From positions 1-33,289 of the IMG/VR virus record IMGVR_UViG_3300031997_000038: DNA of 33,289 bases. One strand, 5' to 3'. Below, piece by piece: positions 3,181 through 27,013 of the stretch; the first letter of the stretch is position 1, and every line of letters starts with the position of its first letter. A program made the position numbers and the translations under genes. Below the pieces are notes generated by a model. That model was not told the origin of the DNA. It did no database searches and worked only from the letters and a program-made list of their open reading frames with translations. Source of the DNA: a virus.

Positions 3181-3936
3181 ATGGGAGAACAAGCAGTATC
3201 GGCGGCAGGCTACCATGTAATCTGGGGAACCAGTTATATCGGGGAGGCCATCGATCCAAAAATGCCGGACGAAACCCGGAACATGGTCGACAACACCACC
3301 CACGACGCCCTCGCGGCGAACGGTGGTTATGAGACAAAGAGCAAGGGTATCATCACCCAGGGAGATGGATCCATCAAGATCTACTACATCGGATCGACTG
3401 TCCACAAGGCACTCCGAACAGACTTCCTCGCGGGAACCGAACGGGATGTGTACTTCATCAGGCCGTCCTTGGGAGACCTCGCTTTCACCTGCAAGAAATG
3501 CACCGCCATCATCTCCAAGATGGCCGAACCCATCGACAAGAAAGGCAACGTTACCTGGGAACTGGCCATCACCCCGACATCCAGCCAGACGGATATCGAG
3601 ACCGCGGCAACCGGCCTGACCACGCCGTTCTTCGCGATCGCCGATGACGACAGCCCCACGAACGCCATCACCCCGGTACCCGCAGCGGCGGCGGCTGTCT
3701 ATGCATACCGCGCCGAGCTCTATGCGGACAACGCAACCTTCACCGTCACCCCGACCGCCACGGTCGGCTCGATCTACGTGAACGGTACCCTCGTGATATC
3801 CGGCGCTGCATCCGGGAACATCACCGCACCTGCAGCCGGGAAGAAGATGTACCTTCCGATCGTGGTCTTCGAGGCCAACAAGTGCCCGAAACCTTACCTG
3901 GTGATCATCGCGAAGGGACCAACGAACCACCCGTGA
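3181..3936 (+). CDS. Major tail tube protein with C-terminal Ig-like extension
   Basis: This 251-residue protein has an AAGGAGG ribosome-binding site at about 3163-3169, the strongest in the structural region, as expected for an abundant protein. Residues about 1-160 look like a tail tube fold, with MADETRNMVDNTTHD-like and ITQGDGSIKIYYIGSTVHKAL segments and a KKGNVTWELAITPTS strand. Residues about 165-251 form a separate beta domain (VYAYRAELYADNATFTVTP, then GSIYVNGTLVISGA) typical of Ig-like/cadherin-like decorations on tail tubes. Such domains often bind sugars on the cell surface. It precedes the chaperone pair and tape measure in standard order. Tube assignment is firm by synteny; the Ig-like domain is inference. 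Confidence 0.8.
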   Translation: MGEQAVSAAGYHVIWGTSYIGEAIDPKMPDETRNMVDNTTHDALAANGGYETKSKGIITQGDGSIKIYYIGSTVHKALRTDFLAGTERDVYFIRPSLGDLAFTCKKCTAIISKMAEPIDKKGNVTWELAITPTSSQTDIETAATGLTTPFFAIADDDSPTNAITPVPAAAAAVYAYRAELYADNATFTVTPTATVGSIYVNGTLVISGAASGNITAPAAGKKMYLPIVVFEANKCPKPYLVIIAKGPTNHP

Positions 3937-3944
3937 GGTGACCA

Positions 3945-4358
3945 GTGACTGACCGATCCATCCCGTTCCAGCTTGGGAAAGGCACTCATCTCCGATTTAA
4001 TCGGGGGGATATTGAGGCCCTGGAGACTGCATTCAGCACTATCAGCGGTCGCCGTATTGGATACCCCCAATTCCCCGATTTCCTCCACAGCCTGACCGGC
4101 CAGGGGTTCTTTGTCTGGCGCGGGCTGAAAATGGAAGCCCCGGACGGGAAACTCATCCATACTTTCCCCCTTAACGTGGCGGGCAGCGAGGAGGCCGGGG
4201 ACGCCGTCTTTGCTTTCATCCAATGCGGCAAACCCGGGATCCTTGGAGGGGCGATCGCGGACGCGCTCGTATCTACTGGTCTTTGGAAATCAAAGACCGA
4301 CAGTGAAAAACAGGATACATCGGAAGGGGTGGACGGACCAAAAAACTCACCGACCTGA
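3945..4358 (+). CDS. Tail assembly chaperone, G-type product (upstream frame)
   Basis: This 137-residue protein starts at GTG 3945 after a GAGGTGA ribosome-binding site. Between tail tube and tape measure genes, siphoviruses encode the chaperone pair equivalent to lambda G and GT. The N-terminal part (IPFQLGKGTHLRFNRGDIEAL) is typical of the upstream chaperone. Twelve bases before its stop lies the slippery heptamer AAAAAAC in the correct phase, so part of the ribosomes should shift -1 into the 4358 frame and give a 232-residue fusion. The stop overlaps the downstream ATG (TGATG). Function is inferred from order plus the frameshift signal. Confidence 0.8.
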   Translation: MTDRSIPFQLGKGTHLRFNRGDIEALETAFSTISGRRIGYPQFPDFLHSLTGQGFFVWRGLKMEAPDGKLIHTFPLNVAGSEEAGDAVFAFIQCGKPGILGGAIADALVSTGLWKSKTDSEKQDTSEGVDGPKNSPT

Positions 4359-4392
4359 TGGCGGACATCATCCCGATCGCCCTCAGGTACGG
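4340..4392 (+). promoter_or_regulatory. Programmed -1 ribosomal frameshift signal (slippery site plus stem-loop)
   Basis: The heptamer A-AAA-AAC occupies 4340-4346 in the phase of the upstream chaperone (codons CCA AAA AAC). Reading on from 4346 in the -1 phase gives CTC ACC GAC CTG ATG, exactly the frame of the downstream ORF. After a six-base spacer a stem-loop follows: ACCTGA (4353-4358) pairs with TCAGGT (4383-4388). Inside it, GGCG (4360-4363) pairs with CGCC (4378-4381), and an outer CCG/CGG (4350-4352/4390-4392) can extend the stem past a single bulged base. Slippery site, spacer and stem match the classical arrangement. Confidence 0.9.
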
Positions 4393-4642
4393 AATAACAG
4401 ACGAACGGACGTGGTGTATGACATATGGAGAACTGATAGCGGAAATTGAGGCAAACCAAAAACGAGAGCAGTTCCTCGATCTCCTAAATGGAAAACGCTG
4501 CGTTATCGACGCCTCACTTCACGGGATCGCATCCTGCCCGGCCGATTACATGGTAACAACGACAACAACCGAAGAAACTCATCCGACCCCTGAAGAGATC
4601 TGCGATCGCGCCTTCAGAGCCTTTGCGGGGGCTGGTTTATGA
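4358..4642 (+). CDS. Tail assembly chaperone, T-type domain (reached by -1 frameshift)
   Basis: This 94-residue frame lies between the G-type chaperone and the tape measure. It can be entered by the -1 frameshift at 4340-4346, or possibly by reinitiation at ATG 4358. Its sequence (RYGITDERTWCMTYGELIAEIEANQKRE) resembles the second chaperone of siphoviruses, which recruits tail tube subunits to the tape measure. The fusion would be 134 residues from the upstream frame plus 98 from this one. The last residues overlap the tape measure start (ATGA). The C-terminal part is rich in Thr and Glu before a short Ala-rich helix. Lambda T is made only as the GT fusion; the same is expected here. Confidence 0.75.
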   Translation: MADIIPIALRYGITDERTWCMTYGELIAEIEANQKREQFLDLLNGKRCVIDASLHGIASCPADYMVTTTTTEETHPTPEEICDRAFRAFAGAGL

Positions 4643-6087
4643 GCCTCATCGATGCACTCCTGGGGGATAAGGGGCTGGTTGTCAAATTCAAGGCAGACCT
4701 CACCGATCTACAGGCCGGGATCGCCAAGGCAAAAACCGACCTGATCGGCTGGAGGGACGAGACTAATGTGAATACGCGTGACATGGCATCATGGGGGGCC
4801 GCCATCACCGCGAACGTGGCCCCGGTTCTCGCCCTGGGAGCTGCAGTATATGGCATGCAGCAGAAGTACGGGGCGCTGGCATCGGAGATCACCGATATGT
4901 CCACCAGTACCGGCTTGAGCATCGACAAGATCCAGCAACTCCAGTATGCTGCCGTGCTCTCCAACACCGCGTTTTCAAACGTGGCGATGGGGGTCAACAC
5001 CCTCACGCTTGCGATCTCCAAGGCCGGGGATGTTTCCAGCGAGGCCGGGAAAGCCTTTGCCGAGATTGGTGTCTCCACAAACGGCCGGTCGGTCGATCAG
5101 GTGTTCGAGGACGCCACCACCGCTCTGGTGGGGATGGAGAATACCACCCGCAGGAACGAGATCGCCATGACCCTCTATGGCCGAAGCTGGAAAGAGATGC
5201 TGCCGTTCATGGAGGACTATATCAAAAACAAAGAGAAGATCCAGAGTTCTCCGACGTTCTCGAAGCAGGACCTGCAGGACCTGAAAGACGCGAAGAAGGC
5301 ATGGGACGATCTCGGGAACAGCGTCACGGTTTATACCGGGAAGGCGCTGGTGGAGGTGCAGAAAGGGACAAGTTTCCTCCTCACTATGGATGCGGCATAC
5401 CGGAAGCTGGCGAAGGGAGATGTCGGGGGTTTTCTCGACGCGGCCGCAGAGGAACGCAACCGGCAGATAATGGTGGAGCATGACAAGCTCACCAATCTGA
5501 TAGCGACCAACAGCGGTCCACAGAAAGCGTGGTCTCCCGCTGGTGCCCCGGCAACTGATCCCTTCTCCGGTCTGACCGCCCAAGAGGCCACGATCAAGAA
5601 TCTGTCTGATTTTACAATCCCGGATCTTGAAAAGAAATTGAAGGACCTGCAGACAAGCGGCACGGCCACTTATGCCGAAACCGCAAGCGCATCGCTCGAC
5701 CTGATCAACGCGAAACAGGAACTGATCGACCTCACGACAAAGGAAACGGATGCCCAGAAGGACCTCAAGACCGCGACGGACGACCTCTATGATGCCCAGG
5801 ACAAGCTTCACGATATCAACAAGGATTTCCAGCGCGAAATGTCGACCCTGAACCCCCGGGATGTAAGTGCTGCCAGGAACCTGATCATCCATAATCAATG
5901 GGCGACCGAGGACCAGCAGGGTGCCATCAGCAAAGCCCAGGAAAAGGTAGGTGCCCAGGCCCAGGCAAAAGCATCCGGGGATCTCATCATCAACATTGAC
6001 GGCAAGCAGTTTGCGAAGGTTCCCAGGGTAGTTGCCGGTGACCTTACACCAGACAAACTAACTTCACGCGGGATAAGGATAGCCTGA
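4639..6087 (+). CDS. Tail tape measure protein (short)
   Basis: The 482-residue protein is mostly helical with regions of coiled coil. It opens like tape measure proteins, with a VKFKADLTDLQAGIAKAKTDL segment. A hydrophobic stretch (about residues 52-72, AITANVAPVLALGAAVYG) follows, then the motif MSTSTGLSIDKIQQLQYAA, where the T-G-x-S-x-x-x-x-Q-x-L pattern is characteristic of the family. Tape measures set tail length; at about 0.15 nm per residue this predicts a tail near 70 nm, short for a siphovirus. It lacks peptidase or lysozyme domains often found in longer versions. ATG 4639 overlaps the upstream stop. Family call is confident; tail length is a rough inference. Confidence 0.9.
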   Translation: MSLIDALLGDKGLVVKFKADLTDLQAGIAKAKTDLIGWRDETNVNTRDMASWGAAITANVAPVLALGAAVYGMQQKYGALASEITDMSTSTGLSIDKIQQLQYAAVLSNTAFSNVAMGVNTLTLAISKAGDVSSEAGKAFAEIGVSTNGRSVDQVFEDATTALVGMENTTRRNEIAMTLYGRSWKEMLPFMEDYIKNKEKIQSSPTFSKQDLQDLKDAKKAWDDLGNSVTVYTGKALVEVQKGTSFLLTMDAAYRKLAKGDVGGFLDAAAEERNRQIMVEHDKLTNLIATNSGPQKAWSPAGAPATDPFSGLTAQEATIKNLSDFTIPDLEKKLKDLQTSGTATYAETASASLDLINAKQELIDLTTKETDAQKDLKTATDDLYDAQDKLHDINKDFQREMSTLNPRDVSAARNLIIHNQWATEDQQGAISKAQEKVGAQAQAKASGDLIINIDGKQFAKVPRVVAGDLTPDKLTSRGIRIA

Positions 6088-11474: not shown

Positions 11475-11548
11475 AGCCCATGGGGGGATTTGAACCCCCG
11501 ACTTTTTGCTTACCAAGCAAACACGCTACCGGTCTGCGTTACATGGGC
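11475..11548 (-). tRNA. tRNA-Thr (anticodon GGT)
   Basis: On the minus strand from 11548 to 11475 all arms fold. The acceptor is GCCCATG/CATGGGC (7 bp) and the D stem is ACGC/GCGT with a loop carrying GG. The anticodon stem TTTGC/GCAAA holds the loop TTGGTAA, giving anticodon GGT (Thr, codon ACC). The T stem is GGGGG/CCCCC with the loop TTCAAAT. The discriminator is T, as in archaeal tRNA-Thr, and no CCA is encoded. The 5' end is only six bases after the stop of the leftward regulator gene, so the two may be co-transcribed and separated by RNase P. Confidence 0.93.
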
Positions 11549-13636: not shown

Positions 13637-13842
13637 CTATAAACCTCGGAATTATCGACTACGCCGATCGCCCGTATGGAGATCCACCGGTCAAGAAAGC
13701 GATCCATATACCGTGTAAGTGTGTGCATTGCCAGAAGATGTCGGTCCGGACGATCGACTGCCCGGACCGGCTGCAGGGTGCTAAGCCGGGTTCATTTGTC
13801 ACGGTGGATGCGGATGGCAGGTTGCAGGCAAAGGTGGGCTGA
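13633..13842 (+). CDS. Small zinc-finger-like protein
   Basis: This 69-residue frame is coupled to the preceding gene (ATGA at 13633). A metal-binding pattern is visible in its middle: C-K-C-x-x-C (IPCKCVHCQK) followed by DC 14 residues after. The C-terminal part (PGSFVTVDADGRLQAKVG) forms a beta hairpin. It belongs to a series of very short Cys-rich proteins in this early region. Such proteins often bind nucleic acid or host proteins. No family is recognised. Confidence 0.5.
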   Translation: MTINLGIIDYADRPYGDPPVKKAIHIPCKCVHCQKMSVRTIDCPDRLQGAKPGSFVTVDADGRLQAKVG

Positions 13843-23432: not shown

Positions 23433-24437
23433 ATGGGTTTCTTTTATCCTCAATGGCAGAAGATTATCAGAATCGGGGTAACAACTCCACCGACTACTAC
23501 CGGGTATCAGGTAAAAGTTGAAATCCCTTGGCAACCCGGAATGCGAGACGATTTTGCCGACCTTCGGTTCTCTGATTATTATCGAATACTGCCATACTGG
23601 ATTGAAACATCGACCACTCGTTCAACTGCTACGGTGTGGGTAAAACTTACTGAGGTTAATACTGCCGCCAACGAGTTCTTTTGTTATTATGGAAATGGTG
23701 GAGCATCATCGGAAAGTAACGGTGATAACGTCTTTGAGTTCTTTGATGATTTTCTTGGTTCTGCATTAGATACAACAAAGTGGACACAAACTACCGACCC
23801 GGCAACCACTCTTGAAGTATCAAATAGTGAGTTGCATATTATTAACACACACGCTGCGGTGAGCGGGGTTTATGCCACAACATCCTTTGGAGTGAACTAT
23901 ACTATAACAGCCAGATGGAAACCACTGACAACCGGGTATAGTTACCCGATGATAGGATCAGATAGTAGAGCGACTGGAGGAACAGATAGGGCAATTGCGT
24001 TTGTGCACGATTATAGTGGCACTAGGTATTATTGGTTAGAAACCACCGCGGTTTCAACGACAAGCACCAGAACGAGTTTAGTAAACGATGGATTATATCA
24101 TGTTATAACAATTTCAAGAAATGGAACGACAAGTGTAATTTTTACGATTGGGACAACCACTGTTACAAATACAGTAAATGTCCCATCAGGATCTATTGCT
24201 CCATCAATAACATCTTTTTATAGTAGTACTTCTGGAGAACAATATGTTGATTGGTTTGCAGTCCGTAAATATCAATCAACCGAACCCACCTGCACACCGG
24301 CAGAGAGCGGGATTAATACTGCATTTTACCAGGCACTATTAAGAGCCAAGCACGTTTTTGATGTGGCAACCTATCCCTACACCCTTGCAGTATCGTTCGT
24401 CACTGACCACATGCACTTGACATGGACTGAACCGTAA
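23433..24437 (+). CDS. DUF2341 adhesin-like protein
   Basis: The first 100 residues of this 334-residue protein match the DUF2341 plan: an opening Y-P-Q-W-Q-K, then a strand, ADLRFSD, LPYWIET, TATVWVKL and EFFCYYGNGGASSESNG, closing with FEFFDDFLGSALDTTKW. That family is common in surface and virus proteins of methanogens and other archaea. The C-terminal part (about 115-290) resembles a concanavalin/LamG-type sugar-binding sandwich (VDWFAVRKYQ). The middle third is A/T-rich compared with the ends, hinting at domain swapping. Likely a fibre or adhesin subunit. Confidence 0.75.
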   Translation: MGFFYPQWQKIIRIGVTTPPTTTGYQVKVEIPWQPGMRDDFADLRFSDYYRILPYWIETSTTRSTATVWVKLTEVNTAANEFFCYYGNGGASSESNGDNVFEFFDDFLGSALDTTKWTQTTDPATTLEVSNSELHIINTHAAVSGVYATTSFGVNYTITARWKPLTTGYSYPMIGSDSRATGGTDRAIAFVHDYSGTRYYWLETTAVSTTSTRTSLVNDGLYHVITISRNGTTSVIFTIGTTTVTNTVNVPSGSIAPSITSFYSSTSGEQYVDWFAVRKYQSTEPTCTPAESGINTAFYQALLRAKHVFDVATYPYTLAVSFVTDHMHLTWTEP

Positions 24438-27013
24438 TGGCAACCAAACTGTATCTGAACTCGGCAACTGCTGATGCACCAGTACCAAACGCAAAACAGT
24501 CTGCCGATACGATTTTAGACGATTTCGCTTCATCGTATGCCACCTACGCAGCACCGGCACAGATGACCATAACTAACGGTAGTAACAACCGTTCAAACTC
24601 CGGTACTGGAACATCAACAACAAGCAACCATAAATCGCATTACGGGACGTGGGTGAGCGCTCCGCTTGGAGCTCAGACATGGACTTCGTGGACTGTCACG
24701 ATTGCGCTCTCGATGCTCGAAACCAGAGCAAAGCAGAACAATTATCCGAGAGTGAAAATCTACAAATGGTTAGCCAATGATACATTTGGTTCCGACATTT
24801 TAGCCCTCGTAAATTCTGGAACAGAAGTCGGCATTACTGCGTCACTTGTTACTTACTTCTCTGCGGTAAGTCTGACAAACACAACATTTGCAGCAGGTGA
24901 CCGGGTAGTTATTGAGATAGAAGATGACGCTACACCGACAGAGACGTATGCCGTTGATCATGCTTTACAGTTCGACGGTGCTGATGCCGGCGCATACGGT
25001 TCTTATGTATCTTTTTCAGGAACGATTACATGGGGTACACAGACATACGATCAGAGCGTTTCAGCCAATGCAACCTTTACACCGTCCGTATCAAGAGCAG
25101 AAACGCTTTATCGTTCTCTTGGTGTAAATCTCGCGTCAACCGTTGGAATCACCCGGCAAACGTATAAAACACTATCAGCATCGCTGACCTTCACCGTTCT
25201 GCTTTCCACACTCTATGCACTACTTCAGAGAAAGACCGGGTCTGGTGGAACGTATGCCGATCTGAAGAAAGTGTTGTGGGGTGATGCGGTACTCGACGAT
25301 TATACCGGGTCAAGCGGGAACACTTACTATTATCGGCTGGCGAAATACATCGATGGTGTATCGCAAGGATGGTCGAACGAAGTAAGTGCTGCATGGACCG
25401 GAGCATCGACCTTCTACCAGACCGTTTCCGCTTCAGCGACGTTCACAGCAGCATTATCAAAGATAGCCACACGATACCGGACGTTATCAGCAAATGCCAC
25501 ATTCACAGCGACGTTATCACGGTTCGTTACCGCATACCGTTCATTATCAGCCTCGGCAACCTTTACCCCCACACTCTCACGATTAGCAACCCGGTATCGG
25601 TCACTATCCGTCAATGCAACCTTTACGGCAGCACTCTCACGTATTCCGACGTATTGGAGAACGATAAGCGCGTCGGCAACCTTTACCCCCACTATTATCA
25701 GGCAGACATACCGGACTCTGGTAGCCTCAGCTACGTTCACGGTTGCATTATCGCGGATCGCCACTCACCTAAAAACAATATCTGTCTCAGCGACGTTCAC
25801 ACCATCAATCGTCCGACAGGGATACAGAACACTAGCTGCAAATGCAACTTTTACAGCGACAATCGGAAAAGCCCTGACCTTATACCGGTCACTTGCTGCA
25901 AATGCCACGTTTACCGTCTCAATCCTCTCACAGAAAACCAAGTATATCACCCTATCAGCCTCAGCCGCATTCACCGTAACGATAGCGAGACTTACAACCC
26001 GATACCGGACGATTTCAACTAACGCCACGTTTACTGTCACATTGACAAAGGCATTGACATTATACCGGACAATCGCTGCAACCGCAACCTTCACCGTCTC
26101 AATTATCCGGCAGTTTTACAGATCACTATCAGTCAGTCTTGCATCTACCGTTACGCTGTCAAGAATAGCAACCTTCTACCGCTCACTATCAGTATCAGCC
26201 ACGTTCACACCGGCACTCACAAAAGTAAAGACCAAACTTCAATCAATCGCCGTAAATGCTACATTCACGGTATCAATCGTCCGGCAGACATACCGCTCAT
26301 TAGCAGTTAGTGCAACCTTTACCGTTGCATTATCCCGGGCATTAACGCTGTATCGTTCACTCGCAGCACCAGTAACATTCACAGTCTCTATTATTCGCCG
26401 AATGTACCGGACGCTTGCGACAAATGCCACGTTCACGGTAACTCTCTCCCGGCTGGCAACCCTCTATCGAACCGTATCAGCATCACTGGCAAGCACCGTC
26501 TCACTCATCGCAACATTACAGGCCGGCACCCGGTATGTCACGCTATCAGCCTCCGCAACGTTCACATCAACCGTTTCAACACTCACCACACGATGCCGGA
26601 CATTATCAGCCAGCCTTGCATCAACGGTCTCGTTATCCAGGACCGCAACCTTCTATCGAACACTCGCGGCAAACCTTACCTTTACGGTCCTGCTATCAAG
26701 AATTTCAACCTTTTACCGGACCTTATCAGCACCACTCACGTTCACGGTATCACTGATAAGAAGAATCTCAGCGTACCGCACCCTGTCCGTTACGGAAGAG
26801 ATCACCCCCACACTTTCACGAACAATCAGTCTGTCCCGGACATTATCGGCAGCCGCTTCATTTATTGTTACTCTGGCTGCCGCAATCTGGAACCTATACC
26901 CCCTGACCGTTACGATCAGCATCCTGAAACGGATTGCAGCTCTCTTAACCCAGCCCCGGACGGTAACACTCTCAGCCCAACCCCGGGCCTGTATTCTGGA
27001 GGTAATTGAATGA
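24437..27013 (+). CDS. Giant repeat fibre/adhesin, about 28 short tandem repeats
   Basis: The 858-residue protein is the longest in the window. Residues about 1-205 are a beta-rich domain (TWVSAPLGAQTWTSWTVTIA). Three repeats follow, then a fibronectin-III-like insert (about 265-325, TYYYRLAKYIDGVSQGWSNE), then about 25 further repeats to near residue 825. The repeat unit is 18-20 residues of the form Y-R-[ST]-L-[SA]-x-[NS]-A-T-F-T-[VPA]-x-[LI]-x-[RK]-x-x-T. Each unit has two short strands separated by a basic turn, so a long beta-solenoid or fibrous rod is expected, studded with Tyr-Arg. A length-variable fibre or surface adhesin is likely. Confidence 0.65.
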   Translation: MATKLYLNSATADAPVPNAKQSADTILDDFASSYATYAAPAQMTITNGSNNRSNSGTGTSTTSNHKSHYGTWVSAPLGAQTWTSWTVTIALSMLETRAKQNNYPRVKIYKWLANDTFGSDILALVNSGTEVGITASLVTYFSAVSLTNTTFAAGDRVVIEIEDDATPTETYAVDHALQFDGADAGAYGSYVSFSGTITWGTQTYDQSVSANATFTPSVSRAETLYRSLGVNLASTVGITRQTYKTLSASLTFTVLLSTLYALLQRKTGSGGTYADLKKVLWGDAVLDDYTGSSGNTYYYRLAKYIDGVSQGWSNEVSAAWTGASTFYQTVSASATFTAALSKIATRYRTLSANATFTATLSRFVTAYRSLSASATFTPTLSRLATRYRSLSVNATFTAALSRIPTYWRTISASATFTPTIIRQTYRTLVASATFTVALSRIATHLKTISVSATFTPSIVRQGYRTLAANATFTATIGKALTLYRSLAANATFTVSILSQKTKYITLSASAAFTVTIARLTTRYRTISTNATFTVTLTKALTLYRTIAATATFTVSIIRQFYRSLSVSLASTVTLSRIATFYRSLSVSATFTPALTKVKTKLQSIAVNATFTVSIVRQTYRSLAVSATFTVALSRALTLYRSLAAPVTFTVSIIRRMYRTLATNATFTVTLSRLATLYRTVSASLASTVSLIATLQAGTRYVTLSASATFTSTVSTLTTRCRTLSASLASTVSLSRTATFYRTLAANLTFTVLLSRISTFYRTLSAPLTFTVSLIRRISAYRTLSVTEEITPTLSRTISLSRTLSAAASFIVTLAAAIWNLYPLTVTISILKRIAALLTQPRTVTLSAQPRACILEVIE
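25425..26850 (+). repeat. Degenerate tandem repeat array inside the fibre gene
   Basis: About 25 units of 54-60 bases each encode the Y-R-T-L-S-A-x-A-T-F-T block. Units alternate between lengths of 54 and 60 bases in several places, suggesting an ancestral two-unit repeat. Units have diverged at silent and replacement sites but keep the pattern, so they are not recent copies. The third frame and the minus strand stay open across it, producing shadow frames. Confidence 0.85.

What the first reader, a model, noticed from the sequence alone, without database searches (positions are those of the whole stretch)
4340..4392. Textbook -1 frameshift signal in tail assembly chaperone genes
The phase-correct A-AAA-AAC heptamer, a six-base spacer and a stem-loop of 10 paired bases (13 with the outer extension) lie just before the upstream stop. 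The -1 frame enters the downstream ORF exactly, giving a 232-residue fusion beside the 137-residue product. The G/GT arrangement is conserved in lambda-like tails, but here it would operate on an archaeal ribosome if the host inference is right, where few -1 signals are well characterised.
Basis: partly seen in the sequence, partly recalled or inferred. Interest (0 to 1): 0.7.

Follow-up and report, generated by a model that had tools for sequence, protein, structure and literature searches.

The report
Tail-chaperone frameshift in a methanogen-type virus
A virus that probably infects a methane-making archaeon carries a conserved "slip back one base" signal that lets ribosomes make two versions of a tail-building helper protein from one gene, a trick common in tailed phages and already reported in viruses of salt-loving archaea.

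Summary
A AAA AAC lies at 4340-4346 in codon phase with ORF1 (3945-4358, 137 aa). It is followed by a 6-nt spacer and a 10-pair stem (13 with the outer CCG/CGG). The -1 frame runs to 4642, giving a 232-aa fusion. Among 8,209 codon positions checked in this window it is the only in-phase A AAA AAC. Six further distinct relatives (ORF1 74% down to 28% aa identity) all keep the in-phase heptamer and the open -1 frame. In four of them the -1 frame has no start codon until 53-77 nt after the heptamer, inside a conserved block that begins earlier, so reinitiation cannot make it. Relatives' -1 products match Phage_TAC_6 / rcc01693, and a tape-measure gene follows, so these are tail assembly chaperones of the G/GT type. 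The stem is kept in three sequences, shows no compensatory change, and is absent in two relatives: it is probably an accessory stimulator. The archaeal host is well supported but indirect. Novelty is low: A_AAA_AAC for G-T expression has been reported in haloarchaeal virus HCTV-2. What is added is a conserved methanogen-type family. No frameshift product has been measured.

The parts
3181..3936 (+). major tail (tube) protein gene upstream of the chaperone pair
   Evidence: phrog_158 major tail protein E 2.5e-5; homologue in relatives at the same place
3945..4358 (+). ORF1, 0-frame tail assembly chaperone ('G'), 137 aa, GTG start
   Evidence: position between tail tube and tape measure; homologues in 6 further distinct loci; 5 of 7 members match phrog_2115 'tail protein', best E 4.6e-9, though the window member itself has no hit
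4326..4332 (+). possible internal Shine-Dalgarno-like stretch (GGGGTGG) about 8 nt upstream of the heptamer
   Evidence: duplex with anti-SD -9.7 kcal/mol, top 5% of background; L003 -10.5 (top 2.1%), L023 -10.5 (top 2.0%), but L013 and L027 unremarkable
4340..4346 (+). slippery heptamer A AAA AAC, in phase with ORF1
   Evidence: identical and in phase in all 7 distinct loci
4347..4352 (+). 6-nt spacer TCACCG (its CCG can pair with 4390-4392, leaving a 3-nt spacer)
4350..4392 (+). stem-loop, 10 inner pairs plus 3 outer pairs
   Evidence: 13 pairs, 97.4% kept over three sequences, no compensatory change; not found in L023 and L027
4346..4642 (+). -1 frame extension ('T' domain) read after slippage; also contains ATG 4358 overlapping the ORF1 stop (TGATG)
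   Evidence: relatives' equivalents match Phage_TAC_6 PF09550 (L027 37.0 bits against cut-off 23.4) and TIGR02216 rcc01693 family
4639..6087 (+). tape measure protein gene, 482 aa
   Evidence: phrog_9483 and phrog_8462, E 7e-11 to 8e-11; homologue in a Methanomicrobiales virus, 46.9% identity

Best explanation
[quoted passage not shown] Most ribosomes read ORF1 to TGA 4356-4358 and make the 137-aa chaperone (G-like). A minority, with tRNA-Lys on AAA and tRNA-Asn on AAC, slip back one base on A-AAA-AAC, aided by the downstream stem and perhaps an upstream Shine-Dalgarno-like stretch, and read to 4642 to give a 232-aa G-T-like fusion. By analogy with lambda, the G part binds the tape measure protein and the T part recruits tail tube subunits. 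Shown here: sequence anatomy, conservation of the in-phase heptamer and -1 ORF, family match of the relatives' -1 products, gene order. Inferred: that slippage occurs, its efficiency, the stimulators, the chaperone roles and the host.
For: In-phase A AAA AAC with an open -1 frame in 7 of 7 distinct loci, ORF1 identity to the window 74, 50, 30, 30, 28 and 28%. It is the only in-phase copy among 8,209 codon positions of the window. The KKL[TA] junction and the following I-P-A-YGI block are conserved in the -1 frame. In L020, L022, L023 and L027 the first start codon in the -1 frame is 53-77 nt after the heptamer, downstream of where the conserved block and the PF09550 match begin (residue 14 of the -1 product). 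The single base difference between window and L003 just after the heptamer (TCA/TTA) changes the 0-frame residue and is silent in the -1 frame. Codon identity at conserved residues is 19/20 in the signal against 35/89 upstream versus L003 (Fisher p 3e-6), and 10/11 against 29/59 versus L013 (p 0.01). Tape measure gene immediately downstream, tail tube gene upstream.
Against: No protein or reporter data. The stem is supported by only three sequences, without compensatory changes, and L023 and L027 show no significant structure. The elevated window-L003 identity extends about 60 nt past the stem (11/13 codons identical), so part of it may reflect a recently exchanged segment rather than RNA constraint. 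In the window, L003 and L013 a TGATG overlap would also allow reinitiation. The window's own ORF1 and ORF2 have no significant family hit by themselves.
Confidence: 0.92

Rival explanations
1. ORF2 is a separate 94-aa protein made by termination-reinitiation at ATG 4358 (TGATG overlap), and the heptamer is incidental.
For: The stop and start overlap at 4356-4360 in window, L003 and L013.
Against: Four homologous loci have no start codon near the ORF1 stop; the first is 53-77 nt past the heptamer, within the conserved domain. Heptamer phase is invariant in all loci. Residues encoded before ATG 4358 (KKLT.L) are conserved in the -1 frame. No Shine-Dalgarno-like stretch is visible just before ATG 4358.
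Confidence: 0.04
2. Both occur: frameshifting makes the fusion, and reinitiation at ATG 4358 also makes some free T domain in the window-L003-L013 group.
For: TGATG is conserved in the three group members while the heptamer is conserved throughout.
Against: No direct evidence of a free product; the ATG can also be explained by the conserved L-M-A residues of the fusion.
Confidence: 0.2
3. The frame change is made by RNA polymerase slippage on the A6 run rather than by the ribosome.
For: The site is a homopolymeric A run.
Against: The run is only six A, is never longer in the seven loci, and is always followed by C in the exact tandem-codon phase. Transcriptional slippage usually needs longer runs (general knowledge).
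Confidence: 0.03

Closest known systems
Lambda G/G-T tail assembly chaperone -1 frameshift, widely conserved in long-tailed phages (review PMC5009743, citing Xu et al. 2004)
   Different: Heptamer A AAA AAC instead of lambda's G GGA AAG (lambda site from own knowledge); no ORF1 sequence match to a lambda G family was found; host inferred to be archaeal
G-T frameshifts of haloarchaeal viruses HVTV-1 and HCTV-1, -2, -5 (PMC5009743, PMC8211752) and Hardycor1 (PMC7911831)
   Same: Archaeal tailed viruses, same gene position; HCTV-2 uses the same heptamer A_AAA_AAC
   Different: A methanogen-type rather than haloarchaeal virus; no sequence relation of the chaperones to haloarchaeal ones was detected; here the site is shown across seven distinct loci
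Rhodobacter gene transfer agent chaperone family rcc01693 (Phage_TAC_6 PF09550, TIGR02216)
   Same: The -1 products of relatives match this family (L027 37.0 bits in Pfam; TIGR02216 best E 1.3e-5)
   Different: The window's own ORF2 falls below detection; how the Rhodobacter genes are joined was not examined here

Membership tests
Programmed -1 frameshift signal of the tandem-slippage type | X XXY YYZ heptamer in phase with the upstream ORF | tested here: met
   A AAA AAC 4340-4346
Programmed -1 frameshift signal of the tandem-slippage type | -1 frame open from the heptamer into the downstream ORF | tested here: met
   open to 4642, 232-aa fusion
Programmed -1 frameshift signal of the tandem-slippage type | conservation of heptamer and frame relation in diverged relatives | tested here: met
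   7 of 7 distinct loci
Programmed -1 frameshift signal of the tandem-slippage type | downstream stimulatory structure 5-9 nt away | tested here: inconclusive
   present in window, L003 and L013; L020 and L022 fold strongly but not beyond codon shuffles; L023 and L027 none
Programmed -1 frameshift signal of the tandem-slippage type | measured frameshift product | not testable with these tools
   needs mass spectrometry, ribosome profiling or a reporter
Tailed-virus tail assembly chaperone G/G-T gene pair | position between tail tube and tape measure genes | tested here: met
   phrog_158 upstream, phrog_9483/8462 downstream
Tailed-virus tail assembly chaperone G/G-T gene pair | sequence match to a tail assembly chaperone family | tested here: met
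   met through relatives: PF09550 in 5 of 7 members of A9, TIGR02216 in 4, phrog_2115 in 5 of 7 members of A8; the window's own proteins have no significant hit alone
Tailed-virus tail assembly chaperone G/G-T gene pair | chaperone fold | tested here: inconclusive
   AlphaFold mean pLDDT 44.6 for ORF1 and 67.2 for ORF2; too low to compare
Virus of an archaeon (methanogen) | closest named homologues are archaeal viruses | tested here: met
   capsid: only haloarchaeal viruses match; terminase: best is psiM2, though many bacterial phages also match; tape measure: best is Methanomicrobiales vir524. The tail tube's only match is a phage assigned to Syntrophomonadaceae at 33.5%
Virus of an archaeon (methanogen) | direct host link (spacer, provirus or isolate) | not tested
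   no provirus found in genome contigs with two queries; no CRISPR spacer search available

The most novel reading that the evidence does not exclude
In methanogen viruses of this family the archaeal ribosome slips efficiently on A-AAA-AAC, a heptamer with a second codon regarded as mammalian-like rather than bacterial, largely without a fixed downstream structure, so the heptamer with archaeal tRNA-Asn would carry most of the effect.
Probability: 0.2. Interest if true: 0.5.

Novelty: new member of a known kind. Interest (0 to 1): 0.33.

Why it matters
-1 frameshifting by archaeal ribosomes rests on few cases: Sulfolobus fucA1 has been shown in vitro, and the virus cases named in the reviews read here are described as apparent or likely. 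This family gives an invariant site with natural variants: with and without a downstream stem, with and without an upstream SD-like stretch, and with a stop 0 to 33 nt downstream. That makes it a ready test set for which elements an archaeal ribosome needs. It also shows that annotation of these methanogen-type viruses should join the two ORFs.

Tried and rejected
No match to ORF1, or to the relatives' ORF1 and ORF2, in annotated phages by tblastn. No relative in genome contigs with ORF1 or tail tube alignments. The DNA pattern of the heptamer plus start region found only the known near relatives. AlphaFold models of ORF1 and ORF2 were too poor for a fold search, so none was run. Rfam: only a flavivirus frameshift element at 15 bits against a cut-off of 43, treated as chance. 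Portal protein had no hit in annotated phages. A covariance model was not built because the stem is seen in only three sequences. Several loci are duplicates of one contig or near-identical contigs (L002/L003, L012/L013, L019/L020, L021/L022) and were counted once; L020 and L022 are counted as distinct but are very similar in the chaperone region.

Full report
What is there. The window is an IMG/VR virus record of 33,289 bases. ORF1 runs 3945-4358 (GTG, 137 aa). The heptamer AAAAAAC lies at 4340-4346, and the ORF1 codons are CCA AAA AAC, so it is the phase-correct A AAA AAC. Slipping back by one base continues as KKLTDLMADIIPIALRYGI... to the stop ending at 4642, a 232-aa fusion. All numbers in the finding are right; if the outer pairs form, the spacer is 3 nt rather than 6.

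Is it more than chance? The heptamer by itself is not unusual: 8 copies on both strands, 4.9 expected. In codon phase it occurs once in 8,209 codon positions of the 33 + strand ORFs checked, and that one is here. The 50 nt after the heptamer fold at -21.0 kcal/mol, a value reached by 1.1% of 50-nt windows in the structural region and by 1.2% of codon shuffles.

Relatives. Loci from IMG/VR gave six further distinct chaperone regions: L003 (with L002), L013 (with L012), L020 (with L019), L022 (with L021), L023 and L027. ORF1 identity to the window is 74, 50, 30, 30, 28 and 28%. All keep A AAA AAC in phase near the end of ORF1 and an open -1 frame of 105-116 aa. The distance from heptamer to the ORF1 stop varies from 0 nt (L020, L022) to 33 nt (L023), so the heptamer is not kept merely as part of a fixed stop/start overlap.

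Frameshift against reinitiation. Window, L003 and L013 carry TGATG, which would permit reinitiation. In L020, L022, L023 and L027 the first start codon of the -1 frame lies 53 or 77 nt after the heptamer, while the conserved -1 product begins directly at the heptamer: KKLA.DW.A.IEP.AYGIC. The Phage_TAC_6 match in L027 starts at residue 14 of the -1 product (37.0 bits, cut-off 23.4), before any start codon. Frameshifting is therefore the only simple way to make the domain in those loci, and by homology the best explanation in the window. Between window and L003 the one base difference just after the heptamer alters the 0-frame residue (S/L) and is silent in the -1 frame.

Constraint on the DNA. 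At conserved residues, window and L003 use the identical codon at 19 of 20 positions in the signal against 35 of 89 upstream (Fisher p 3e-6). Against L013 it is 10 of 11 against 29 of 59 (p 0.01). A caution: identity with L003 remains high for about 60 nt past the stem (11 of 13 codons), and the tail tube gene also has a stretch with 90% identical codons, so local exchange between viruses may contribute.

The stem. Thirteen pairs are 97.4% kept over the three closest sequences, with one U-A to U-G change, one broken pair and no compensatory change. That is compatible with the stem but does not prove it. L020 and L022 fold strongly but no better than their codon shuffles, and L023 and L027 have no notable structure. 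An SD-like stretch upstream is strong in window, L003 and L023, borderline in L020 and L022, and unremarkable in L013 and L027. The heptamer is thus the invariant element and the stimulators vary.

Gene identity. The pair lies between a major tail protein (phrog_158) and a tape measure protein (phrog_9483, phrog_8462). The window's own two ORFs have no significant family hit alone, but relatives' ORF1 match phrog_2115 'tail protein' (5 of 7, best 4.6e-9) and their -1 products match Phage_TAC_6 (5 of 7, best 4.8e-9) and TIGR02216 rcc01693 (4 of 7). AlphaFold models were too uncertain to add anything.

Host. The major capsid protein matches only haloarchaeal tailed viruses in the annotated phage collection. 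The terminase's best match is Methanobacterium phage psiM2 at 48.8%, though many bacterial phages also match. The tape measure's best match is a Methanomicrobiales virus at 46.9%. The tail tube protein's only match, at 33.5%, is a phage assigned to the bacterial family Syntrophomonadaceae. Together this supports an archaeal, probably methanogen, host but is not a direct link; no provirus was found.

Known and new. G/G-T frameshifting is widely conserved in long-tailed phages, and -1 G-T frameshifting has been proposed for HVTV-1 and HCTV-1, -2 and -5; HCTV-2's site is A_AAA_AAC (PMC5009743; PMC8211752). Hardycor1 has G GGA AAT (PMC7911831). Sulfolobus fucA1 is the archaeal case shown in vitro (PMC8211752). 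Searches of the held library found no description of such a site in a methanogen virus, which is weak evidence of absence because most subscription papers are not held. The finding is therefore a well-supported new member of a known kind.

What remains inferred: that slippage happens, at what efficiency, whether the stem matters, the G/T roles by analogy with lambda, and the host.

Noticed in passing
L010 13209-13948 (psiM2, AF065411): psiM2 ORF19 carries an in-phase A AAA AAG at 13712-13718 with an open -1 frame (78 aa from the heptamer) that is not annotated: a likely G-T frameshift in a virus with a known methanogen host.
   Followed up: partly
L035 1495-2230 (psiM100, AF301375): The psiM2 relative psiM100 keeps a similar -1 frame extension by eye (AEEEWIHLKR...) but has no canonical heptamer at the end of ORF19; the run is G AAA AAG.
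   Followed up: partly
L011 19288-19885 (Methanomicrobiales virus vir524, BK063669): The two ORFs before the tape measure gene are in a +1 (or -2) relation, with GTT CCC CCA TGA at the first stop, so a related virus may use +1 slippage instead.
   Followed up: partly
window 3181-4642 against L020: Tail tube protein is 90% identical to that of L020 while the adjoining chaperone ORF1 is only 30% identical: a sharp mosaic boundary between tube and chaperone genes.
   Followed up: no
window 24437-27013: An 858-aa ORF made of many degenerate repeats of the type LSASATFTVTLSR; no DNA-level tandem array is detected.
   Followed up: no
window 11475-11548: tRNA-Thr (ggt) gene on the - strand beside the tail module; could be an integration-site remnant or a virus-carried tRNA.
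   Followed up: no
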